Assembly (NCBI RefSeq): GCF_900104575.1 | Contig: NZ_LT629731.1 | Span: 1,347,051-1,411,050 of the forward strand | Origin: Bacillus tuaregi | GTDB taxonomy: Bacteria > Bacillota > Bacilli > Bacillales > Cytobacillaceae | DNA: 64,000 nucleotides | Direction of reading: 5' to 3' | Shown here: positions 12,945-31,231 of the stretch, piece after piece | Numbering within the stretch: the stretch's first letter is position 1 | How the letters are laid out: each line of letters starts with the position of its first letter | Program-made: the position numbers and the translations under genes | Notes under the pieces: generated by a model | Seen by the model: only the letters and a program-made list of their open reading frames with translations | What the model was told of the DNA's origin: nothing | Databases searched by the model: none

Positions 12945-12986
12945 ATTATAGATTATTTTCATTTAGGAAAGTTTGATTTAAATCAA
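12945..12986 (-). promoter_or_regulatory. Class II FNR-type promoter, minus-strand arm (V4R gene)
   Basis: The palindrome TTGATTTAAATCAA (12973-12986) is centred 29.5 bp before a perfect minus-strand TATAAT (plus-strand ATTATA, 12945-12950). The predicted start is near 12938, about 38 bp before the V4R start codon. This is the mirror image of the plus-strand arm. Confidence 0.75.
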
Positions 12987-13014
12987 TTTCTCTCTATATA
13001 AATATCGTTATAAT
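12973..13014 (+). promoter_or_regulatory. Class II FNR-type promoter, plus-strand arm (PAS-GGDEF-EAL gene)
   Basis: The same TTGAT-N4-ATCAA palindrome (12973-12986, centre 12979.5) lies 29.5 bp before TATAAT (13009-13014). The predicted start near 13021 puts the activator at -41.5, as in class II FNR/CRP promoters. There is no good -35, which fits activator dependence. Confidence 0.8.
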
Positions 13015-13028
13015 GATAAGAATGATAA
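13014..13028. promoter_or_regulatory. Degenerate Fur-type site over the GGDEF-EAL start
   Basis: TGATAAGAATGATAA matches the 7-1-7 Fur consensus at 11 of 14 positions and overlaps the predicted transcription start. It is weaker than the sites at 21186 and 23892. It is also readable as a direct repeat of AATGATA, so this is tentative. Confidence 0.35.
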
Positions 13029-13045
13029 TTTTGGAGGAAAACTGT

Positions 13046-14683
13046 ATGAAACCACCCGCCCTTTCAGTAACCAGCGATCTGTTCGATCAGATAGCAGCAA
13101 ATGTATTCATCACGAATCAGAACGGATGTATTCTAACTGTAAATTCATTCTATTTAAATAGGAGCGGTTATACTCTTGAGGAGGTTATCGGTCATACCAT
13201 TCAAGACTTTATAGAGGGGCTGGATCATCCAAATGGGGATTTGCAAGAAGAGGTGAGGCTGAAAATAAAAGGGAAACGTGCGGTACTCCAACAACTTCTA
13301 GTTAATCCAAGAAACCGGACTGTGACAGCAGAACCCTATACCATTTGGCTCTTGAAGGACTTTCAAGTATGCGGATACGATTCCTTAACCAATCTGCCCA
13401 ATCGTCACCTGATGAATCAAGAGATACAGAGAGCAATCGTTCAAGCACAGAAAAACAAATCAATTTTTGCTGTATTATTTTTGGATTTGGATCGCTTTAA
13501 ATTTGTCAATGATACATTGGGGCATTCATATGGTGATGATTTACTGCAGGAGGTCTCGGTGCGGATTAGAAAGGCCATTGGGACAAATCATACAATTTCC
13601 CGTATGGGTGGTGATGAATTTGTGTGCCTGCTGGAAGAAATTGAGAATGGACGTGAGGCAGAGGAAGTAGCGAGAAGAATCATTGATCAATTTTCCTTGC
13701 CGTTTCTTTTAAAAGAAACAGACCTTTATATGACCACAAGTATTGGAATCAGTTTGTACCCATTTGATGGTGACGAAGCGGATGTTCTGATTACCAATGC
13801 TGATTCTGCGATGTACGGTGCGAAGAAAAAGGGCAGGAATCAATATTCTAAAGCAAAGGTTGAATGGAATGCCGGGGGCTATGAAAAACTACTACTTGAA
13901 AACAGTTTGCGACAAGCAATAAAGGAGAATCAATTTGTCCTACACTTTCAGCCGCAAATACAGGTAAAGAAGAACCAAATTATGTCTATGGAGGCATTAA
14001 TCCGTTGGAATCATCCAGATTTAGGACTCCTGATGCCCGGAGAATTTATTCCAATCGCAGAGGAAAGTGGATTAATCCTGCAAATCGGTGACTGGGTATT
14101 ACGAACTGCTTGCGAAAAAATGAAACAGTGGCTTTATCATGGAAATCCGCCGATTCGAGTGGCAGTTAATTTAGCAGCCGGACAGTTTCTCCAAAGAAAT
14201 TTTGTGGAAAAAGTAAGACAAATCCTGGTGGATACGTCTTTGGATGCCTCTTATCTGGAGCTTGAGATAACAGAAAATATGGTCATGAACGATGTTAAGA
14301 CAGGGATTCAAGTCCTTCGCCAATTAAAGCAGCTAGGTGTCTATATTTCGATTGATGACTTTGGTACAGGTTATTCCTCACTTAATTATTTAAAGGAATT
14401 GACGGTCGATACATTAAAAATTGACCGTTCATTTATCTTTGATATTGAAAAAAATCCTAACAGTGTGGTTTTAACAAAGGCCATTACCGCTCTCGCACAT
14501 GATTTAAAATTGAACGTCGTTGCAGAAGGAGTTGAAACCTACAAACAACTATCACTCGTAAAACAATGCTCTTGTGATACTATACAAGGCTATTATTTCA
14601 CAAAGCCCCTTAGCTATGAAGAAACGGTATCGTATATACAAAGCTATGAAAAAAGTGGAGGGCGACTCCAACACCTTCTTTGA
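13046..14683 (+). CDS. PAS-GGDEF-EAL cyclic-di-GMP turnover protein
   Basis: A 545-residue soluble protein; ATG 13046 follows TTGGAGG. An N-terminal PAS domain (about residues 5-115; NGCILTVNSFYLNRSGYTLEEVIG) precedes a GGDEF domain with intact RMGGDEF near residue 190 and an EAL domain with MEALIRW near 320, DDFGTGYSSL near 440 and AEGVET near 495. Both catalytic signatures are intact, so synthase, phosphodiesterase or both are possible. There is no membrane segment. It is divergent from a V4R protein with a shared FNR-type box, suggesting low-oxygen or NO-responsive control. A decayed copy of part of the upstream HAD gene begins three bases after its stop codon. Confidence 0.9.
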   Translation: MKPPALSVTSDLFDQIAANVFITNQNGCILTVNSFYLNRSGYTLEEVIGHTIQDFIEGLDHPNGDLQEEVRLKIKGKRAVLQQLLVNPRNRTVTAEPYTIWLLKDFQVCGYDSLTNLPNRHLMNQEIQRAIVQAQKNKSIFAVLFLDLDRFKFVNDTLGHSYGDDLLQEVSVRIRKAIGTNHTISRMGGDEFVCLLEEIENGREAEEVARRIIDQFSLPFLLKETDLYMTTSIGISLYPFDGDEADVLITNADSAMYGAKKKGRNQYSKAKVEWNAGGYEKLLLENSLRQAIKENQFVLHFQPQIQVKKNQIMSMEALIRWNHPDLGLLMPGEFIPIAEESGLILQIGDWVLRTACEKMKQWLYHGNPPIRVAVNLAAGQFLQRNFVEKVRQILVDTSLDASYLELEITENMVMNDVKTGIQVLRQLKQLGVYISIDDFGTGYSSLNYLKELTVDTLKIDRSFIFDIEKNPNSVVLTKAITALAHDLKLNVVAEGVETYKQLSLVKQCSCDTIQGYYFTKPLSYEETVSYIQSYEKSGGRLQHLL

Positions 14684-21185: not shown

Positions 21186-21200
21186 TGATAATGATTATCA
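21186..21200. promoter_or_regulatory. Perfect Fur-type box upstream of the flavodoxin unit
   Basis: TGATAATGATTATCA matches the Bacillus 7-1-7 Fur consensus (TGATAAT-N-ATTATCA) at all 14 fixed positions. It lies 16 bp upstream of the FNR-type palindrome. PerR and Zur sites are similar, but the match is to Fur. Confidence 0.8.
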
Positions 21201-21216
21201 ATTAATAGATGAAGAA

Positions 21217-21258
21217 TTGATTCAAATCAATTCATTTAAAAGGATAGTAGTCTATGAT
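21217..21258 (+). promoter_or_regulatory. Class II FNR-type promoter of the flavodoxin unit
   Basis: The palindrome TTGATTCAAATCAA (21217-21230, centre 21223.5) is followed 29.5 bp later by TATGAT (21253-21258), the same geometry as at 12973 and 23871. The predicted start is near 21265, leaving an 80-nt leader before the 43-residue ORF. Confidence 0.8.
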
Positions 21259-22954: not shown

Positions 22955-23758
22955 ATGAAAAAAGTATCGAATCTATTAGCGCAGAAGGGAATGAACCTAG
23001 AACGAGAATTAATCAAGGTTGAAGGCTGTGTGAATTGCGGTAAAGAACTTAAAACCTACCGAATGCAAATCATTGGCGGTTCGAAAAAAGGTCAATGGCG
23101 GACAATTACACAAGAGTGTGATTGTTATCTATCACAGGAAGCTTTAGCCGCAGAATCTAAAATAAAGATAAAGCATTTTAGCAAGCTTTCAACCATTAAT
23201 CAATCTTTAAGGCAGGCTACCTTAGAAAACTATGTCCCTCATCATGATTCCCAATTTTCAGCTATGCAAAAGGCGATCGAATTTATAGAAAAGCTATCTC
23301 AAAATAAACAGGCACGATTGATCTATTATGGGGAACCCGGGCTTGGCAAATCTCACATAGCCGTTGGGATTGGGAAAATCGTTGAAGCTAGATTTCGTAA
23401 AACCTGTATGTTCTTAGAATTGCCAGCTTTAAAACAAATGATAAAATCCTCTTGGTCAAAGGAGAGTACTTATTCTGAACGGGACCTAATGAGGTCTATC
23501 GCTGAGGCTGATTTAGTCATACTTGATGATGTAGGTGCTGAAGGAATCACGCCTTGGACCAAGGAATTCATGTTTGCTATTTTAAATTCTAGATTATCAA
23601 AGAGTTTAATAGTGACGACCAATATGTCTCTGCCAGATCTATATATGGAATATGGAGCAAAAATAATCGATCGGTTTCTCGAAAATATGACTAAACAAGA
23701 TCTTATCAAAATAGAGGGAGAACACAGCTATCGATTAAAACACTTTATTGAAGACTAG
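22955..23758 (+). CDS. DnaC/DnaI-like AAA+ helicase loader
   Basis: A 267-residue protein. An N-terminal zinc-binding region has CVNCGKEL (about residue 25) and a later CDC (about 58), as in DnaI-type loaders. The AAA+ core has Walker A GEPGLGKS (about 127-134), Walker B LVILDDVG (about 185) and a sensor region IVTTNMS. Such loaders place the replicative helicase on DNA. IstB transposition helpers share this ATPase, but no istA-like gene or terminal repeats are present. The window shows no other replication genes, so this looks like a phage or integrative-element remnant, or a stand-alone cassette. A terminator follows. Confidence 0.8.
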   Translation: MKKVSNLLAQKGMNLERELIKVEGCVNCGKELKTYRMQIIGGSKKGQWRTITQECDCYLSQEALAAESKIKIKHFSKLSTINQSLRQATLENYVPHHDSQFSAMQKAIEFIEKLSQNKQARLIYYGEPGLGKSHIAVGIGKIVEARFRKTCMFLELPALKQMIKSSWSKESTYSERDLMRSIAEADLVILDDVGAEGITPWTKEFMFAILNSRLSKSLIVTTNMSLPDLYMEYGAKIIDRFLENMTKQDLIKIEGEHSYRLKHFIED

Positions 23759-23779: not shown

Positions 23780-23812
23780 AAAAAAAGCTCAGCCATTGGT
23801 TGAGCTTTTTTT
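23780..23812 (+). terminator. Terminator after the helicase-loader pair
   Basis: AAAAAAGCTCA pairs with TGAGCTTTTTT around a GCCATTGGT loop (23780-23812), with the T-run as the 3' arm. It isolates the next Fur/FNR-controlled operon from the upstream genes. Confidence 0.9.
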
Positions 23813-23870: not shown

Positions 23871-23912
23871 TTGATTTCAATCAATTAATAATGATAATCA
23901 TTCTCATATAAT
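23871..23912 (+). promoter_or_regulatory. Class II FNR-type promoter of the mevalonate/qNor operon
   Basis: The palindrome TTGATTTCAATCAA (23871-23884, centre 23877.5) lies 29.5 bp before a perfect TATAAT (23907-23912). The predicted start is near 23919. A Fur-type box fills the gap between activator site and -10. Confidence 0.85.
23892..23906. promoter_or_regulatory. Fur-type box inside the mevalonate/qNor promoter
   Basis: TGATAATCATTCTCA matches the 7-1-7 Fur consensus at 13 of 14 positions and touches the TATAAT. Iron-loaded Fur bound here would block RNA polymerase. Confidence 0.8.
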
Positions 23913-23980
23913 GAGAGAGAAATCAATAGTCCATTCCATTATATAAAAAGATAAATAAGGAGTTGAAATAGAACATTCAT

Positions 23981-24241
23981 ATGGATACGAAAAACATTCA
24001 CTCAGGTGATAAAAAATCAAAAGAAAACATTGAGGTTTGGGAGGATCTTGTTTCTATTAAGGATTTGGTGAGAGCCCTGCTCATCATGAGTCTCACAACG
24101 ATGGGGGCCTATTTCCTTGCGCCAAATGATCCCCCTAAGCCATTATTCTTCGGTTTAGTGGGAGCCCTCATTGGGTTCATATTAACAAGTTTCATCATTA
24201 AACCTAAACGAATTTTACAAGAAGTTGAGAGTGAGGAATAA
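23981..24241 (+). CDS. Small two-helix membrane protein, probable transporter partner
   Basis: An 86-residue protein with a charged N-terminus (about 30 residues) and two predicted membrane helices (LVRALLIMSLTTMGAYFLA and LFFGLVGALIGFILTSFII). The stop at 24239-24241 lies two bases before the GTG of the TctA-like permease, so the two are translationally linked. It is shorter than TctB (four helices, about 150 residues) but occupies the TctB position, so it may be a reduced small subunit. AAGGAG (23958-23963) lies about 17 bases before ATG 23981, an unusually long spacing, so the start is uncertain. It is the first gene of the operon. Confidence 0.7.
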   Translation: MDTKNIHSGDKKSKENIEVWEDLVSIKDLVRALLIMSLTTMGAYFLAPNDPPKPLFFGLVGALIGFILTSFIIKPKRILQEVESEE

Positions 24242-24243
24242 GT

Positions 24244-25605
24244 GTGGATACTGCTTTAATTTTTCAAATGGTGGCAGCTGCTGCGATTGGAGCGGTGGTT
24301 TATACCATAATTGGAATTGCACCAGGAACAGATGAGACAGCAGTTATTGCACCGGTTACATTAGTTCTCGTGGTATCAGGGCTGCATCCTGTTGTCGTAC
24401 TGGCCTTTTTCATTTCTGCGATTGTCGCCCATAAGTTAACCGATTCGATTCCTGTTGCGACAGCCGGGATTCCTGGAGGAGTTATGGCTACCCCCATGGT
24501 GGAGCATGCATTAGTCTTGAAAAAACATGGATTGTCGGATGTTAGTATCCGTAAAATGGCCTCCGGCTCTGTGATTGGAACGATTATTGCGTTGCCTGTC
24601 AGCTTATTGCTGGCGCAAGCATTGATTCCGGTTGCTGAGATCATAAAGGATTATGGGGAGCTTTTATTTGTTTTTGGCGCGGTATTTTTAGCACTTATGA
24701 GTAAAAATAGGTGGCTTGCACTTGCCGCCATTATCCCTTTCGCTTTATTGATTCAAGGAATGCGATCCTTGTACTGGGAGGTTGGAGCCGTACCAGAAGG
24801 AACCAATGTATTTACTTCCTTTTTCTTAGGAATTACGATTGGACCCGTAATTTTAATTTTATTTGAATTACTCAATAAAGAGAATCGGAATCGTCTGCAG
24901 CGGTTTGATAAAAAGACGATTCAGTATAAAAGGACAAATGGAGAAAAAGGGTTTCCTAACCCGTTCAAAATTTTGACCAAAAAAGAATTAGCCGTAAGTT
25001 CTCTTTCATCCTTAATTGGAACCTTTACGTTTATTATGAGTGCTGTCGGGACTACTATCTTTGTCGGTGAAATGGTGTCCAGTCGAACGAAGGATCCTGT
25101 GGAAAAGGCATCCCTTTCAATTGCTAGTATGGAAGCACTGGCGAATGCCACCTATCTTTCCGGTACGCTGGTGCCTTTAATTGCATTAGGCATCCCCCTA
25201 TCATCGGTTGCCATGGGGCCGGCGAATCCATTATTTAATGCGCCTCCAGTCTTTAACTTAGAGCATAATCTGCATCATGTTTTATCGATGACTGACTTTG
25301 TTTGGGCAGCGGTGATTGGTGCGGTGATGGCTCTCATCTTTACGTATTTTATGACGATTAAATATTCACAGCAGATCTGTGCCTTTGTCTTTAAAAGAAT
25401 CCCGCATGAGGCGATATTGGGACTGTTCTTTAGCTTAGTATTATTGCTGGCTTTCATGGATGCCGGATGGATCAATGTCGGTGGTGTACTGTTAATCTCC
25501 ATTGTTGCAGGAGTGCTCCATAGATGGGGAATTAACTATGGGGTTCAGTTTATGGTTTTATACTCAGCTCCATGGATTGTCTCCCAGTTAGCTGGGCTTT
25601 TGTAA
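24244..25605 (+). CDS. TctA-like membrane permease of the mevalonate operon
   Basis: A 453-residue protein with about eleven membrane helices, starting at GTG 24244. The N-terminal IIGIAPGTDETAVIAPVTLV and the central GTLVPLIALGIPLSSVAMGPANPLF stretch resemble the glycine/proline signatures of tripartite tricarboxylate (TctA) permeases. No periplasmic TctC-type binding protein is encoded nearby. It lies directly before three mevalonate-pathway kinase/decarboxylase genes in one operon, so mevalonate or a related hydroxy acid is an attractive substrate. This comes from gene context only. The small upstream protein may be its partner. Confidence 0.72.
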   Translation: MDTALIFQMVAAAAIGAVVYTIIGIAPGTDETAVIAPVTLVLVVSGLHPVVVLAFFISAIVAHKLTDSIPVATAGIPGGVMATPMVEHALVLKKHGLSDVSIRKMASGSVIGTIIALPVSLLLAQALIPVAEIIKDYGELLFVFGAVFLALMSKNRWLALAAIIPFALLIQGMRSLYWEVGAVPEGTNVFTSFFLGITIGPVILILFELLNKENRNRLQRFDKKTIQYKRTNGEKGFPNPFKILTKKELAVSSLSSLIGTFTFIMSAVGTTIFVGEMVSSRTKDPVEKASLSIASMEALANATYLSGTLVPLIALGIPLSSVAMGPANPLFNAPPVFNLEHNLHHVLSMTDFVWAAVIGAVMALIFTYFMTIKYSQQICAFVFKRIPHEAILGLFFSLVLLLAFMDAGWINVGGVLLISIVAGVLHRWGINYGVQFMVLYSAPWIVSQLAGLL

Positions 25606-25630
25606 CAAAACATAATAAAAAGGAGGGCTT

Positions 25631-26584
25631 ATGATGGTCATCGCGACACCGCCTAAGGTTGGCATTGGACATGCACATAGTAAATTAATTCTAGTAGGTG
25701 AACATGCAGTTGTATACGGCAAGCCCGCCATTGCGATTCCCTTTCCGCTGGAAGTAACCTCTACCGTTGAAAGCAGAGAGGGTGAGGCGATGTTGGCATG
25801 CACTCACTATGTTGGCCTCTTGAATCAAGTACCGCAGCCTTTAAAAGGAATCGCTCTCTGTATCAATCATACATTAATATACCTGGGAAAACCCTTGAGC
25901 GGCCTACTGATTCGTCTTCAATCTGAAATTCCAATGGGACGCGGTTTAGGCTCAAGTGCAGCTATCGCAGTTGCAATCGTCCGAAGTCTATTTTCCTTTT
26001 ATGGAAGGCCCTTAACGCAGCATAAATTGATGGAGCTTGTTCACAAAGCAGAGGAGTATGCACATGGAAATCCAAGTGGAATTGATATGGCGGCTACCTC
26101 CAGTCATATGCCTATTTGGTTTCAAAGGGATAGAAAGGTGGATCCATTAACTGTTGGGAAAGCGCTGCATCTGGTTGTGGCTGACAGCGGAAAAATAGGA
26201 GATACCCTTTCAGCCGTAAAAAAGGTAAAAGAAAATTATCGATTAGAGCCTGCAAAAGTCAAAGGAGCCATCGAACAGGTGGAACAGATTGCTAAGCTGG
26301 CGAAAGTTGCCCTAGCAAAAGGTGATCTTCATATGCTAGGCAGCTTGTTAGATGCCAACCATGATGAATTAAGGACAATGGGTGTCAGCGATAAGGGTCT
26401 CAACCAGCTGGTTGAAACGGCAAAAAATGAAGGGGCACTGGGGGCAAAATTGACAGGCGGCGGCTGTGGAGGATGTATCATGGCTCTCGCCAATTCTCTT
26501 CATCATGCGGAGCAGTTAGCGAAAAGACTCTTGAGTGCAGGTGCTTATAAAACCTGGTATTTTACGATTGAAAATGATACTTAG
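25631..26584 (+). CDS. mvaK1: Mevalonate kinase
   Basis: A 317-residue GHMP kinase; ATG 25631 follows AAGGAGGG. Motif 1 is SKLILVGEHAVVYGKPAIAIP (about residues 17-37), typical of mevalonate kinases. The ATP loop is PMGRGLGSSAA (101-111), and motif 3 is KLTGGGCGGCIMAL near residue 276. NPSGIDMAATSS supplies the conserved aspartate. It phosphorylates mevalonate to 5-phosphomevalonate in the cytosol. The gene order mvaK1-mvaD-mvaK2 is that of staphylococci and other Gram-positive cocci. In this window it is linked to a TctA-like permease and a NO reductase instead of mvaS/mvaA. Confidence 0.93.
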   Translation: MMVIATPPKVGIGHAHSKLILVGEHAVVYGKPAIAIPFPLEVTSTVESREGEAMLACTHYVGLLNQVPQPLKGIALCINHTLIYLGKPLSGLLIRLQSEIPMGRGLGSSAAIAVAIVRSLFSFYGRPLTQHKLMELVHKAEEYAHGNPSGIDMAATSSHMPIWFQRDRKVDPLTVGKALHLVVADSGKIGDTLSAVKKVKENYRLEPAKVKGAIEQVEQIAKLAKVALAKGDLHMLGSLLDANHDELRTMGVSDKGLNQLVETAKNEGALGAKLTGGGCGGCIMALANSLHHAEQLAKRLLSAGAYKTWYFTIENDT

Positions 26585-26626
26585 ACATGAGGACTTAAAG
26601 TTTGCAAAAGGATGGGGAGGATATCG

Positions 26627-27673
26627 ATGCAAGCAACAGCAAGAGCCAATACAAATATTGCCCTGATAAAATATTGGGGAAAACGGGATGAGGACCTGTT
26701 TTTACCAATGAATAGTAGCATTTCCATCACATTGGATCAGTTTTATACCACAACAACGGTTCAATTTTGTGAATCGATTTCGGCTGACCTCTTTGTATTC
26801 AATCAACAGCTTGCGAATGAAGCAGAAACCCTTAAAGTAACCCGGTTTCTAGATATAGTGAGGAAAATGGCAGGGAAAGAATGGTTTGCCCTTGTGCACT
26901 CAACGAATAAGGTTCCAACTGCAGCTGGTTTAGCCTCCTCTGCCTCAGGATTTGCGGCATTAGCGGCCGCTTCTGCAAAAGCGATAGGCCTGGATTTAGA
27001 GGAGAAGGAATTATCCAAGCTAGCCCGTCAAGGGTCGGGCTCTGCCAGTCGATCTATTTTTGGTGGTTTTGTTGAATGGCAGAAGGGTACGAGAACAGAC
27101 GGAGACGATTCATATGCCAAGCCCATCCTACGAGAGCAGGATTGGAAATTGAGTATTCTTTCTGTGATTGTCGCATCGCGTGAAAAGAAAGTATCAAGCA
27201 GAGAGGGAATGAGGCGAACGGTTGAAACGTCTGCCTTTTATTCTGGGTGGCTGGAAACGGTAGAAAGAGATATGGAGATAGCAAGAGCGGCCATAAACGA
27301 GCGGGATTTTGAAAGGCTAGGCGAGGTAGTGGAAGCCAATGCATTAAAAATGCATGCCACGACATTAGGGGCGAAACCTCCGTTTACTTATTGGCAAAAG
27401 GGAACGATGGAAGTGATGACCCTCATTCAAAGCTTAAGAGCACAAGGAATGGCAGCCTATTTTACTATTGATGCTGGACCCAATGTTAAGGTTCTTTGTT
27501 TGCCAAAGGATGAACAGAGGGTTCGTGAAAAATTATTAATGCTTTCTACTGTTCAACATGTTTATACTTGCCATCCAGGTTCAGGAATTTCCTTTTTACC
27601 AACAAGTAAGAACAAAAAAATCCCATATGATTTAGAGAGTGATAGAAAAGATATTTGTTATTTAAGTAGGTGA
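26627..27673 (+). CDS. mvaD: Diphosphomevalonate decarboxylase
   Basis: A 348-residue GHMP-fold enzyme; I chose ATG 26627 because GGGGAGG lies seven bases before it, and an in-frame start at 26612 precedes that site. The N-terminus ATARANTNIALIKYWGKRDE is the diphosphomevalonate decarboxylase signature, followed by LPMNSSISITLD and a TAAGLASSASGFAALA phosphate loop near residue 100. It uses ATP to convert diphosphomevalonate to isopentenyl diphosphate and CO2. It lies between the mevalonate kinase and phosphomevalonate kinase genes, and the next gene begins only 7 bp after its stop. No isopentenyl-diphosphate isomerase gene is nearby. Confidence 0.94.
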   Translation: MQATARANTNIALIKYWGKRDEDLFLPMNSSISITLDQFYTTTTVQFCESISADLFVFNQQLANEAETLKVTRFLDIVRKMAGKEWFALVHSTNKVPTAAGLASSASGFAALAAASAKAIGLDLEEKELSKLARQGSGSASRSIFGGFVEWQKGTRTDGDDSYAKPILREQDWKLSILSVIVASREKKVSSREGMRRTVETSAFYSGWLETVERDMEIARAAINERDFERLGEVVEANALKMHATTLGAKPPFTYWQKGTMEVMTLIQSLRAQGMAAYFTIDAGPNVKVLCLPKDEQRVREKLLMLSTVQHVYTCHPGSGISFLPTSKNKKIPYDLESDRKDICYLSR

Positions 27674-27680
27674 ATGAAAC

Positions 27681-28787
27681 ATGACTAACTCAGAATGGAA
27701 GCTTCGAGTGCCTGGAAAGCTCATGATTGCCGGTGAATATGCCATTCTTGAGCCAAGGCAGCATGCTGTTGTGATGGCAGTTGACCGGTATATAACGGTT
27801 GAATTAAAGGAGAGTAAAGAAAATATTCTCTCTTTACCTCAATTAGGGCTAAGAGAGGTGACCTGGATAAACGATGGAGTTACACCGATTTTTAATAGAG
27901 GCGATTCCCGACTAAAAGTGATTCAGCAAGCCTTGAAAACAATGAATCAATATTTTCGGGAACAGTCAATAGAAATTAGAAACTGCCGGTTAACGATAAC
28001 GAGTGAATTGGTGGATATCGATGGACGGAAATATGGTCTAGGGTCAAGCGCTGCTATCACGGTGGCTGTTGTAGCATCGCTACTGGCATTCCATCGTATT
28101 CAGTTACCTTGTGAACAGCTATTTAAACTAGCAGCACTTTCTCATCTTCTAGCACAAGGGAATGGTTCTGGAGCTGATATTGCTGCTGCCACTTATGGTG
28201 GCTTGATAAATTACACGGCGTTTCGTCCGAATTGGCTTTTGGGCAAATGGAAGGAAGGAACAAAGCTTAATGAACTATTAGAAACATCATGGCCACAACT
28301 TTCCATTCGTCATATAACACTTCCGGCTGAGGTTGAAATAGGTACCGGGTGGACAAAAGTAACGGCAAGAACAGGTCCTATGGTGCAGAAAATTCAGAGA
28401 TTCCGCCTAACCGAGCCGCATCAATATCATTCTTTTTTGCAGGAAAGCTCTAGAGCGGTTACCCAATTCGTAAAAGGCATTGAAACGTGTAACTTTGATC
28501 GAGCGATGGTTGGTATTTCACAAAACCGGCAAGCTTTAAGACGGCTAGGAGCGTTTACAAATGTGCTGATTGAAACCCCTAAATTAACGAGATTATGTGA
28601 GATTGGTGAGAAATTTGGGAGTGCTAAACCTTCAGGTGCGGGCGGCGGAGATTGTGGAATCGCTTTAATTCAAAAACAACAGAAATCATTATTACATGAA
28701 GCCTGGAGAAAAGAAGGGATTATACCATTACATGTATCTTGTTCCCAAAAAGGATTTGTCGTAATGGAAATGATTCGTAGGTCATAA
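27681..28787 (+). CDS. mvaK2: Phosphomevalonate kinase
   Basis: A 368-residue GHMP kinase. Motif 1 is VPGKLMIAGEYAILEPRQHA (about residues 10-29), with the GEYAVL pattern of bacterial phosphomevalonate kinases. The ATP loop is YGLGSSAAITVAVV (about 117-130), GNGSGADIAA follows, and motif 3 is KPSGAGGGDCGIAL near residue 315. It converts 5-phosphomevalonate to diphosphomevalonate. With the two preceding genes it completes the mevalonate to isopentenyl diphosphate route. The gap of 74 bp to the NO reductase gene holds no clear terminator, so co-transcription is likely. Confidence 0.93.
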   Translation: MTNSEWKLRVPGKLMIAGEYAILEPRQHAVVMAVDRYITVELKESKENILSLPQLGLREVTWINDGVTPIFNRGDSRLKVIQQALKTMNQYFREQSIEIRNCRLTITSELVDIDGRKYGLGSSAAITVAVVASLLAFHRIQLPCEQLFKLAALSHLLAQGNGSGADIAAATYGGLINYTAFRPNWLLGKWKEGTKLNELLETSWPQLSIRHITLPAEVEIGTGWTKVTARTGPMVQKIQRFRLTEPHQYHSFLQESSRAVTQFVKGIETCNFDRAMVGISQNRQALRRLGAFTNVLIETPKLTRLCEIGEKFGSAKPSGAGGGDCGIALIQKQQKSLLHEAWRKEGIIPLHVSCSQKGFVVMEMIRRS

Positions 28788-28861
28788 TCGTCGACATAAA
28801 AGGCTAGAATTTAAGCTCCGAATTTTGAAAATGAATTTACGATGAGAGAGGATTGTTGAAA

Positions 28862-31231
28862 ATGAGTTTACCCTCATCTGCTCATAGCATGAATAATAGA
28901 CCAAAGAAAGCAGCCAATAGTTTTTTAAAATCAGTATTGGTTGGTACTTTATTACTGGTATTTACGGTTTTATTAGTTGGAGGATATTGGATATTTAAAG
29001 ACCAAGCACCAAGACCTCTTGTCACAACCACTGATGGTGAAGTATTGATGACAAAAGAGAGCATAATGGGAGGACAAGCCGTATTTCAAAAGTACGGACT
29101 AATGGACTATGGAAGTGTACTGGGAAATGGATCGTACATGGGTCCAGACTATACAGCGGAAGCGTTGAAAATCTATACCGAGGGAATGCAGGATTTTTAT
29201 GCAGCTGACGTGGAAGGGGTCATTTTTGACGAACTGACGATAAAAGAACAAGAACAGATTCGGGAAAAAGTGAAGGCGGAGATGAGGGAAAATCGTTATC
29301 TTGAAGAGACGGATACCCTTATTTTAACGGAAGCACAGGTCTATGGTCTTGAACAGGTTCGGGAATTTTATCAAAAAGTATTTACTGAAGGTGATGGCTG
29401 GGGATTACAGGAAAACCTAATTAAAGAAGAACATATGCCGAAAGAGGGACGCTCCTGGGTACATGAAGGAGATCAAATCACGCAAATTGCTGACTTCTTC
29501 TTTTGGACAGCGTGGCTCTCAAGTACCAACCGCCTGAACGATACGATTTCGTATACGAATAACTGGCCTTATTACGAGGATGCCGGAAATGTCATGAGCT
29601 ATTCAGCTATTTTATGGAGCGGTGGAAGTATTACGATTTTATCTCTTATTCTAGCCCTTATTCTTTTCCTATTCTTTAGGTATCAGTTAGAAATGAAAGA
29701 AGCTTTTTCACCAGGCAATTTTCCAAGAATTCATCTGGAGAAAATTCCAGTTACCTCTTCACAGGTTAAAGCAGGTAAGTATTTTGTTGTTGTGTCTATT
29801 CTTTTCTTCATTCAGGTTATGTTTGGTGCTTTATTGGCTCACTATTACACAGAGCCTGATTCTTTCTTCGGCATCAAGTGGATTGTCGAGCTATTACCGT
29901 TTAGTTTTTCAAAAGGGGCACATCTACAATTAGCTATTTTCTGGATTGCTACCGCCTGGTTAGGATTAGGAATTTATGTAGCCCCACTTGTTGGCGGGTA
30001 TGAGCCGAAGCATCAGGGTAAGTTAGTTAATATTCTATTTTGGGCCCTTGTCGTATTAGTCTTTGGCAGCTTAGCTGGTGAATGGTTAGGGGTTAATGGC
30101 TATCTTGGCAATGCTTGGTTCATGTTTGGTCATCAAGGATGGGAATATTTGGAGTTAGGCCGATTCTGGCAATATCTATTAGCCGCCGGAATGATGATTT
30201 GGTTGTTTATCGTCTTTAGGGGGATTAGGAGTGCCTTAAAGCGGGAAACGGATCGAGGTGGTCTTGTCCATCTCTTATTCTATGCATCCATTGGTGTACC
30301 GTTATTCTATGTTTTTGCTTTCCTAATTCAGCCGGATACAAGCTACACAATGGCCGATTACTGGCGTTGGTGGATTGTTCATTTATGGGTAGAAGGTATA
30401 TTTGAAGTCTTTGCCGTTGTCGTGATTGGTTTCCTATTAGTTCGCATGAAACTGGTAACGAAAAAATCAACGATTCGACAACTATACTTCCAAATTACGA
30501 TTTTACTAGGAAGCGGAGTTCTTGGAATTGGTCATCACTATTATTATAACGGCTCATCAGAAGTCTGGATTGCCATTGGCTCGGTCTTCTCTGCTCTAGA
30601 AATTATCCCGTTAACTTTATTGATTTTAGAAGCGTATTCACAATATAAAATGCTTCGAGATGGAGGGATTGATTTCCCTTATAAATCGACCTTCTGGTTC
30701 TTAATATCAACCGCACTTTGGAATTTAGTCGGTGCTGGTGTACTAGGATTCTTAATCAATCTGCCAGTTGTGAACTATTTTGAACATGGTCAGCAATTAA
30801 CACCGGCACATGCCCACGGGGCGATGATGGGGGTATATGGAATGTTTGCGATTGCGCTGCTTCTTTACTCCTTAAGAAATATCGTTAAGCCAAAGGCGTG
30901 GAGCGACAAATTCCTCAAATTCATCTGCTGGATGTTGAATATTGGATTAGCAGGAATGGTCTTTATTACTTTATTACCGATTGGGTTCATACAACTGAAG
31001 CTGGCTTACGATCAAGGCTATTGGGCATCCCGTGACCCAGAAACGTATTTTGGCATAGAAGCCGTTCAGAATTTGCTTTTAGTCAGATCAGTCCCGGATA
31101 CCATTTTCTTAATTGGTGTCATTGGGCTTGTCATCTTCTGTATTAAAGCACTGTTTAATCTAAGGAAGCCTACACACGGGGAGAATGAACTTCTACCGGT
31201 GCAGGACTTAGCAGCAGATGAAGAAGAATGA
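28862..31231 (+). CDS. norZ: Quinol-dependent nitric oxide reductase (qNor)
   Basis: A 789-residue heme-copper-oxidase-superfamily protein. I chose ATG 28862 after GAGAGAGGA; the upstream TTG codons are closer to the ribosome site. The N-terminal helix (about 22-44) and a roughly 200-residue extracytoplasmic domain are the NorC-like fused part that marks quinol-dependent enzymes. The catalytic half has many histidines, including HLWVEGIFEVFAVVV (with the conserved glutamates), GIGHHYYYNG and AHAHGAMMGVYGMF. It reduces 2 NO to N2O using membrane quinol, for NO detoxification or denitrification. It is last in the Fur/FNR-controlled operon with the mevalonate genes. No NO-specific regulator gene is adjacent. 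Confidence 0.95.
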   Translation: MSLPSSAHSMNNRPKKAANSFLKSVLVGTLLLVFTVLLVGGYWIFKDQAPRPLVTTTDGEVLMTKESIMGGQAVFQKYGLMDYGSVLGNGSYMGPDYTAEALKIYTEGMQDFYAADVEGVIFDELTIKEQEQIREKVKAEMRENRYLEETDTLILTEAQVYGLEQVREFYQKVFTEGDGWGLQENLIKEEHMPKEGRSWVHEGDQITQIADFFFWTAWLSSTNRLNDTISYTNNWPYYEDAGNVMSYSAILWSGGSITILSLILALILFLFFRYQLEMKEAFSPGNFPRIHLEKIPVTSSQVKAGKYFVVVSILFFIQVMFGALLAHYYTEPDSFFGIKWIVELLPFSFSKGAHLQLAIFWIATAWLGLGIYVAPLVGGYEPKHQGKLVNILFWALVVLVFGSLAGEWLGVNGYLGNAWFMFGHQGWEYLELGRFWQYLLAAGMMIWLFIVFRGIRSALKRETDRGGLVHLLFYASIGVPLFYVFAFLIQPDTSYTMADYWRWWIVHLWVEGIFEVFAVVVIGFLLVRMKLVTKKSTIRQLYFQITILLGSGVLGIGHHYYYNGSSEVWIAIGSVFSALEIIPLTLLILEAYSQYKMLRDGGIDFPYKSTFWFLISTALWNLVGAGVLGFLINLPVVNYFEHGQQLTPAHAHGAMMGVYGMFAIALLLYSLRNIVKPKAWSDKFLKFICWMLNIGLAGMVFITLLPIGFIQLKLAYDQGYWASRDPETYFGIEAVQNLLLVRSVPDTIFLIGVIGLVIFCIKALFNLRKPTHGENELLPVQDLAADEEE

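What the first reader, a model, noticed from the sequence alone, without database searches (positions are those of the whole stretch)
23871..31231. Iron- and FNR/NO-controlled lower mevalonate operon with a candidate importer and NO reductase
Seen: one promoter with an FNR-type palindrome at class II spacing (23871) and a 13/14 Fur box overlapping the core promoter (23892). It is followed without a terminator by a two-helix protein, a TctA-like permease, mevalonate kinase, diphosphomevalonate decarboxylase, phosphomevalonate kinase and qNor. HMG-CoA synthase and reductase and IPP isomerase are absent from the window. Known: Bacillaceae normally make isoprenoids by the MEP pathway, whose IspG and IspH carry [4Fe-4S] clusters damaged by NO and limited by iron; qNor removes NO. 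Inference: the operon is an Fe-S-independent salvage route that imports mevalonate and converts it to IPP when the MEP pathway fails. I know of no described system pairing these parts.
Basis: partly seen in the sequence, partly recalled or inferred. Interest (0 to 1): 0.92.

Follow-up and report, generated by a model that had tools for sequence, protein, structure and literature searches.

The report
Iron-switched mevalonate scavenging operon in Bacillaceae
A Bacillus-like bacterium carries, behind what looks like an iron-starvation switch, genes that most likely let it import mevalonate from outside and turn it into essential isoprenoid building blocks without the iron-sulfur enzymes of its normal route, which would be an unrecognised nutritional backup with a candidate mevalonate importer.

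Summary
One promoter with a TTGAT-N4-ATCAA site and a 13/14 Fur box precedes a small protein, TctA-type permease, MvaK1, MvaD, MvaK2 and qNor. The genome has IspG, IspH and type-2 IDI, but no HMG-CoA reductase and no HMG-CoA synthase over cut-off. Related loci support salvage. The small protein + permease pair lies beside lower mevalonate genes in 21 of 31 loci; all 21 genomes have IspG, none HMG-CoA reductase. In 7 other loci the pair follows HMG-CoA reductase; distant homologues on two alphaproteobacterial plasmids sit in reductase-permease-lyase operons. Mevalonate is the metabolite these contexts share. A Fur box of at least 12/14 precedes 15 of 18 Bacillaceae operons plus the window (background 5 of 186), but only 18 of all 30 salvage operons read, 0 of 3 clostridial; it precedes none of 7 reductase-kinase operons. 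The NO part is lineage-specific: qNor in 3 of 31 loci, the FNR-type site in 6 of 18. Best reading: Fur-controlled import of external mevalonate as an Fe-S-free bypass of the MEP pathway. Transport and regulation are inferred, not measured.

The parts
23871..23884 (+). FNR/CRP-family palindrome TTGATTTCAATCAA, centre about -41.5
   Evidence: same type of site exactly 21 bp before the Fur box start in 6 of 18 promoters
23892..23906 (+). Fur box TGATAATCATTCTCA (13/14) between the upstream site and the -10
23907..23912 (+). -10 element TATAAT
   Evidence: in the alignment of 6 promoters identical in 5, one base different in L015
23981..24241 (+). small protein, 86 aa, two hydrophobic stretches, constant partner of the permease (TctB-like in position only)
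   Evidence: no family match; present directly before the permease in all 38 loci given
24244..25605 (+). TctA-family permease, proposed mevalonate importer
   Evidence: PF01970 113.6 bits; genomic contexts
25631..26584 (+). mvaK1, mevalonate kinase
   Evidence: TIGR00549 259.8 bits, cut-off 163; PDB 2oi2
26627..27673 (+). mvaD, diphosphomevalonate decarboxylase (an earlier start at 26612 is possible)
   Evidence: TIGR01240 370.8 bits, cut-off 171; PDB 5v2l
27681..28787 (+). mvaK2, phosphomevalonate kinase
   Evidence: TIGR01220 313 bits, cut-off 166; PDB 3k17
28862..31231 (+). quinol-type nitric oxide reductase (qNor), lineage-specific addition
   Evidence: PF22085, PF00115; PDB 3ayf 1323 bits; at this place in 3 of 31 kinase-type loci

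Best explanation
This is a mevalonate salvage operon. The small protein and the TctA-type permease import mevalonate made by other organisms. MvaK1, MvaK2 and MvaD convert it with ATP to IPP, and the type-2 IDI encoded elsewhere in the genome makes DMAPP. None of these steps uses an iron-sulfur cluster (established enzymology, recalled). The MEP pathway is the normal route; [quoted passage not shown] Fur represses the operon while iron is plentiful, so salvage is switched on when iron is short. In this lineage an FNR/CRP-family regulator adds an anaerobic or NO-related signal and qNor has been appended. Shown here: gene content, no HMG-CoA reductase found, IspG and IspH present, conserved contexts, an operator conserved in many relatives. 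Inferred: substrate and direction of transport, Fur binding, physiological role.
For: Own genome: IspG, IspH, IDI-2, a GHMP kinase read as IspE; no HMG-CoA reductase, no HMG-CoA synthase over cut-off. Permease context: beside lower mevalonate genes in 21 of 31 loci (all three genes seen in 19; L010 is cut inside mvaD, L034 shows only mvaK2), directly after HMG-CoA reductase in 7 of 31; of the other three, L022 has a reductase elsewhere and L027, L037 are cut by contig ends. HMG-CoA reductase in 0 of these 21 genomes, IspG in 21 of 21. In 397 genomes of the order: MvaD over cut-off in 33, permease of at least 55% identity in 24, 22 of them with MvaD; the other two have HMG-CoA reductase next to it. 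Intact permease near mvaD in 15 of 19 MvaD genomes without HMG-CoA reductase and 1 of 14 with it. Alphaproteobacterial homologues (36-38%) sit in reductase - hypothetical - permease - HMG-CoA lyase operons in 2 of 2 annotated records opened (a third had no annotation). Fur box of at least 12/14 in 15 of 18 Bacillaceae salvage promoters against 5 of 186 other upstream regions, and in 3 of 3 differently ordered f15 operons that carry the permease.
Against: No transport or expression data. Fur box under 12/14 in 12 of 30 kinase-type loci read: 3 of 18, 3 of 3 clostridial, 6 of 9 others, 4 of these at 10/14 or less. G130, which has the upper pathway, keeps a 13/14 Fur box before a broken permease, so the box is not confined to genomes without it. 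On the permease tree the change between kinase and reductase contexts within Bacillota needs only one event, and the genome counts are not corrected for relatedness. G379 has both the operon with permease and an HMG-CoA reductase. Two genomes without the reductase (G237, G324) lack the close permease. Completeness is not told for the 31 genomes, some of which are MAGs. Availability of mevalonate in the habitat is unknown.
Confidence: 0.78

Rival explanations
1. The permease carries a different branched hydroxy acid (for example 3-hydroxy-3-methylglutarate) or exports an intermediate, and the kinases serve an unknown internal mevalonate source.
For: TctA-family transporters commonly carry di- and tricarboxylates (recalled), and no solved structure matches the permease by sequence.
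Against: No HMG-CoA reductase in 21 of 21 kinase-type genomes, and mevalonate is the shared metabolite of the kinase and reductase contexts.
Confidence: 0.1
2. The operon is a nitric oxide and anaerobiosis defence module; qNor and the FNR-type site are its core and mevalonate salvage protects isoprenoid supply while NO damages Fe-S clusters.
For: FNR-type site exactly 21 bp before the Fur box in 6 of 18 promoters, with variable middle and flanks; qNor in the window, L013 and L031, all three with that site.
Against: qNor in only 3 of 31 kinase-type loci; 10 of the 18 promoters have neither FNR-type pattern in 300 bases; TTGAY-N4-RTCAA also occurs upstream of 10 of 186 background genes.
Confidence: 0.15
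3. The iron signal marks the source, not the sink: iron-starved fungi channel mevalonate into siderophores (recalled), and the bacterium takes up mevalonate when it meets such fungi.
For: A Fur box before a scavenging permease.
Against: The retained MEP route with Fe-S enzymes (IspG in 21 of 21 genomes) explains the iron link more directly; no siderophore-processing gene is among the operon's genes.
Confidence: 0.06
4. Ordinary mevalonate pathway whose upper genes lie elsewhere.
For: Some relatives do have a thiolase-mvaS-mvaA cluster elsewhere.
Against: HMG-CoA reductase search of the whole genome, rated 100% complete, found nothing, nor in the 21 kinase-type genomes.
Confidence: 0.03

Closest known systems
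Lower mevalonate pathway of Gram-positive cocci (mvaK1-mvaD-mvaK2; Staphylococcus, Streptococcus; recalled)
   Same: Same three enzyme families; a S. aureus mvaS mutant could not grow without mevalonate (PMC6052127; start of abstract and passages seen).
   Different: Here no upper pathway was found, a permease is built in, MEP enzymes are present and a Fur box lies at the promoter.
Mevalonate growth-factor requirement of sake lactobacilli (hiochi bacteria; recalled, no paper read; search listing only)
   Same: External mevalonate feeds isoprenoid synthesis.
   Different: Those are auxotrophs; here salvage would be optional beside the MEP route, and a candidate importer is named.
Mevalonate catabolism (Pseudomonas mevalonii type: HMG-CoA reductase and lyase; recalled)
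   Same: The same permease pair occurs with HMG-CoA reductase in relatives, and distant homologues with reductase and lyase on two alphaproteobacterial plasmids.
   Different: There mevalonate is a carbon source; here it is kinased to IPP.
Tripartite tricarboxylate transporters (TctABC)
   Same: TctA-family permease after a small membrane protein.
   Different: No TctC binding protein in the operon; the small partner matches no Pfam or NCBIfam model.
Iron-sparing substitutions (flavodoxin for ferredoxin, Fe-S-free isoenzymes; recalled)
   Same: Fur-controlled replacement of an Fe-S dependent function.
   Different: A stretch of a pathway is bypassed by importing a metabolite.

Membership tests
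Lower mevalonate pathway | MvaK1, MvaD, MvaK2 over curated cut-offs | tested here: met
   solved homologues
Complete mevalonate pathway | HMG-CoA synthase and HMG-CoA reductase in the genome | tested here: not met
MEP pathway as main route | IspG and IspH present | tested here: met
   a GHMP kinase is read as IspE; Dxs, Dxr, IspD, IspF not searched
Tripartite tricarboxylate transporter | TctA-family permease | tested here: met
   PF01970 113.6 bits, cut-off 28.9
Tripartite tricarboxylate transporter | TctC binding protein in the operon | tested here: not met
   no such ORF among those of at least 90 aa in 23981-31231
Tripartite tricarboxylate transporter | TctB small subunit | tested here: inconclusive
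   86-aa partner conserved but no Pfam/NCBIfam match
Mevalonate transporter | mevalonate uptake | not testable with these tools
   genomic context only
Fur regulon | Fur box at the promoter, conserved in relatives | tested here: met
   15 of 18 Bacillaceae salvage promoters of the first set; 18 of 30 kinase-type loci in all
Fur regulon | Fur binding and iron response | not testable with these tools
   -
FNR regulon | TTGAT-N4-ATCAA site at class II position, and a regulator able to read it | tested here: inconclusive
   site conserved in 6 of 18; one genome protein (L072) has a TPETISR recognition helix and cysteines near its start (what such a helix reads is recalled)
qNor | NorB catalytic domain fused to cytochrome c-like domain | tested here: met

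The most novel reading that the evidence does not exclude
Bacillota carry an iron- (and, in some lineages, oxygen/NO-) controlled switch between two isoprenoid routes: under iron plenty they make IPP by the Fe-S dependent MEP pathway, and under iron starvation they draw on mevalonate released by neighbours, using a two-part, binding-protein-free TctA-type mevalonate importer that constitutes a new transporter family shared with mevalonate degraders across phyla.
Probability: 0.6. Interest if true: 0.87.

Novelty: new variant of a known kind. Interest (0 to 1): 0.8.

Why it matters
It would identify a bacterial mevalonate importer family, suggest mevalonate as a shared nutrient in microbial communities, and show that bacteria can escape the iron cost of the MEP pathway by nutrition rather than by a replacement enzyme. 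It also bears on how MEP-pathway inhibitors act on bacteria where mevalonate is around. The importer would be a useful tool for isoprenoid engineering.

Tried and rejected
Hidden upper pathway in the own genome: searched for HMG-CoA reductase and synthase, not found over cut-off; the ORF of the weak synthase hit reads as FabH. Atypical decarboxylase or kinase routes: the alternative models (phosphomevalonate decarboxylase, archaeal PMK, mevalonate-3-kinase) score below their cut-offs. NCBIfam's 'degradative' label as a mark of catabolic reductases: it is also given to the 4 reductases scanned from beside mvaS (340-369 bits) and to the one of G379 (350), against 406-465 bits for the 11 scanned from beside the permease, so the label alone was not used. 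Plasmid carriage: in 72,556 plasmid records only 34-38% homologues in 5 records at E 1e-60. Solved structures of the permease: none by sequence. Several swaps of permease context within Bacillota: the tree (quick method, 43 rows, 36 labelled) needs only one. Literature: 10 searches listed nothing that I could recognise, from titles and abstract starts, as describing such an operon or a TctA-type mevalonate transporter; three papers were opened for passages only; most subscription journals are not in the library.
Full report
Observation. TTGATTTCAATCAA (23871-23884) is followed by a 13/14 Fur box that starts 21 bases further on (23892-23906) and at once by TATAAT. A hairpin with flanking A and T runs at about 23780-23812, read by eye and not listed by the scan, lies between the DnaI-like gene upstream and the operon. 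The genes are a small protein (86 aa, no family), a TctA-family permease, MvaK1, MvaD, MvaK2 (over curated cut-offs) and a qNor. The scan lists no terminator-like site in the 74-base gap before qNor (its total, 6, is no more than shuffles give), so co-transcription is plausible but not shown.

The genome. It is rated 100% complete with 1.85% contamination (4.86 Mb). It has IspG, IspH, a GHMP kinase that I read as IspE and a type-2 IPP isomerase. HMG-CoA reductase gives no match and HMG-CoA synthase none over cut-off (the ORF of the weak hit reads as FabH). So the lower mevalonate pathway stands without an upper half that I could find, beside MEP enzymes. Dxs, Dxr, IspD and IspF were not searched.

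What the permease goes with. A scan of genome contigs with the permease gave 31 loci. In 21 the small protein + permease pair, or the part of it on the contig, lies next to lower mevalonate genes: all three of mvaK1, mvaD and mvaK2 in 19, while L010 is cut inside mvaD and L034 shows only part of the permease and mvaK2; in three clostridial loci the order is mvaK1-mvaD-small-permease-mvaK2. In 7 the pair follows an HMG-CoA reductase gene, with an HMG-CoA lyase gene between in L033. L022 has a reductase elsewhere in its genome, and L027 and L037 are cut by contig ends. Whole-genome searches of the 31: HMG-CoA reductase in 8, none of them among the 21 kinase-type genomes; IspG in 26, including all 21; type-2 IDI over cut-off in 30 of 32 genomes with the own one. 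An IDI-2 gene sits close to the kinases in 12 of the 21 loci. Completeness of these genomes is not told, and some are MAGs.

A sample of the order. Of 397 genomes, 33 have MvaD over cut-off. The own genome and 18 of the other 32 lack HMG-CoA reductase. An intact permease of the close kind lies near mvaD in 15 of those 19 and in 1 of the 14 with the reductase (Fisher 6e-5, not corrected for kinship; 8 of the 14 are one family, f14). In the 14, the reductase is in the same operon as the kinases in 7, beside HMG-CoA synthase and thiolase in 6 regions read (two of the synthases confirmed by NCBIfam), and without such neighbours in G379. In G130, which has the thiolase-synthase-reductase cluster, the permease beside the kinases is in pieces. 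Searching the same 397 genomes for the permease found 28 at E 1e-90 and 24 with at least 55% identity: 16 near the kinases, 1 split from them by a contig end (G261), 5 beside HMG-CoA reductase and 2 (G233, G424) detached in genomes that have the kinases elsewhere. Exceptions: G379 has operon, permease and a reductase; G237 (80% complete) and G324 lack both reductase and close permease, G324 having a 38% homologue divergent from its mvaK1.

Beyond Bacillota. On plasmids of Roseomonas gilardii and Lichenicola cladoniae, 36-38% homologues lie in the order degradative HMG-CoA reductase, hypothetical protein, permease, HMG-CoA lyase. A third record opened has no annotation there; two more hits were not opened. 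The substrate common to the kinases and the reductase is mevalonate. This triangulation is the main argument that the permease imports mevalonate. Within Bacillota the change of context needs only one event on the tree, so the alphaproteobacterial operons matter as a second, distant instance of the catabolic context.

Iron control. Upstream of the operon, 15 of 18 Bacillaceae-type loci (the window and 17) have a Fur box of at least 12/14, reached by 0-2 of 200 shuffles each, against 5 of 186 upstream regions of other ORFs in the same loci (Fisher 6e-16). Three of those five background hits are in this window: one is the perfect box at 21186 and two are one 12/14 site seen from both sides. Three operons of a distant family (f15), with the order mvaK1-mvaD-mvaK2-idi2-small-permease, have 14, 12 and 12 of 14 before mvaK1. 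Against this, six further kinase-type loci score 9-11 and three clostridial ones 10-11. In total 18 of 30 kinase-type loci read reach 12/14; L027 (12/14) is left out because its contig ends after the permease. Controls: 0 of 15 upstream regions from the loci without kinases (8 before the small gene, L022 included, and 7 before the reductase) and 0 of 7 reductase-kinase operons. G130, with the upper pathway, keeps 13/14 before its broken permease. So the iron box goes with the salvage arrangement rather than with the enzymes as such, with many exceptions. One reductase-type locus, L011, carries a sigma-54 activator gene upstream instead.

The FNR-type site and qNor. TTGAY-N4-RTCAA starts exactly 21 bp before the Fur box in 6 of 18 promoters, with the two half-sites conserved and the middle and flanks freer. 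Two others have TGTGA-N6-TCACA further upstream. The first pattern also occurs in 300 bases upstream of 10 of 186 background ORFs, the second of 1. The genome encodes several Crp/Fnr-type proteins (9 matches over cut-off); one (L072) has a TPETISR recognition helix of the kind that reads TTGAT (recalled) and cysteines near its start. qNor is at this place only in the window, L013 and L031 (3 of 31 kinase-type loci: the window, 21, 9; L010 ends before that place). The NO element is therefore a local addition. A flavodoxin gene follows the operon in L013 (after qNor) and L038 (after mvaK2). In the window a perfect Fur box and an FNR-type site lie between an ABC ATPase gene and a small ORF followed by a flavodoxin gene; which unit they serve is open.

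Mechanism and novelty. [quoted passage not shown] also in the start of the abstract of PMC11218510, listing). Fur repression then makes salvage an answer to iron shortage. The permease step and the regulation are inferred. A review of isoprenoid pathway diversity (PMC13001223, 12 passages of a term search) discusses incomplete and dual pathways, and those passages mention no such salvage; PMC12405511 (passages) says that mevalonate import systems exist in several bacterial species, without the passages naming them. Ten library searches (named under Tried and rejected) listed nothing recognisable as this operon. I rate it a new variant of a known kind: known enzymes and known mevalonate feeding, with an unrecognised importer candidate and iron control.

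Noticed in passing
window 21186-21230: A perfect Fur box (TGATAATGATTATCA) and TTGATTCAAATCAA lie between an ABC ATPase gene (-) and a small ORF plus flavodoxin gene (+): a second Fur + FNR-type control region 2.7 kb from the operon.
   Followed up: partly
L077, about C16:1827 kb of the own genome: A second qNor-like reading frame (64% identity over 216 aa, running to the locus end) lies beside a Crp/Fnr-family regulator gene.
   Followed up: no
window 12973-12986: TTGATTTAAATCAA lies just before a gene (13013-14683) that reads as GGDEF/EAL-type.
   Followed up: no
L128 and L129 (Roseomonas gilardii, Lichenicola cladoniae plasmids): HMG-CoA reductase - hypothetical - TctA permease - HMG-CoA lyase operons: likely mevalonate degradation units.
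   Followed up: partly
L090 (G130): Lower mevalonate operon with a permease in pieces and a 13/14 Fur box, in a genome that has a thiolase-mvaS-mvaA cluster elsewhere: looks like salvage giving way to a full pathway.
   Followed up: partly
L124, L125, L126, L106: A 38-41% paralogous permease with a small partner, without mevalonate genes in the stretches fetched for three f14 genomes, but divergent from mvaK1 in L106.
   Followed up: no
L013, L105, L108, L109, L122 and window 22955-23758: A DnaI-like gene recurs near the salvage genes or the permease in distant families (L122 by eye), hinting at an old shared chromosomal location.
   Followed up: no
L011 6888-8285; L029, L033, L121: Reductase-type loci carry a sigma-54 activator (Pfam, L011) or what read by eye as XRE-type regulators, as expected for inducible catabolism.
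   Followed up: partly
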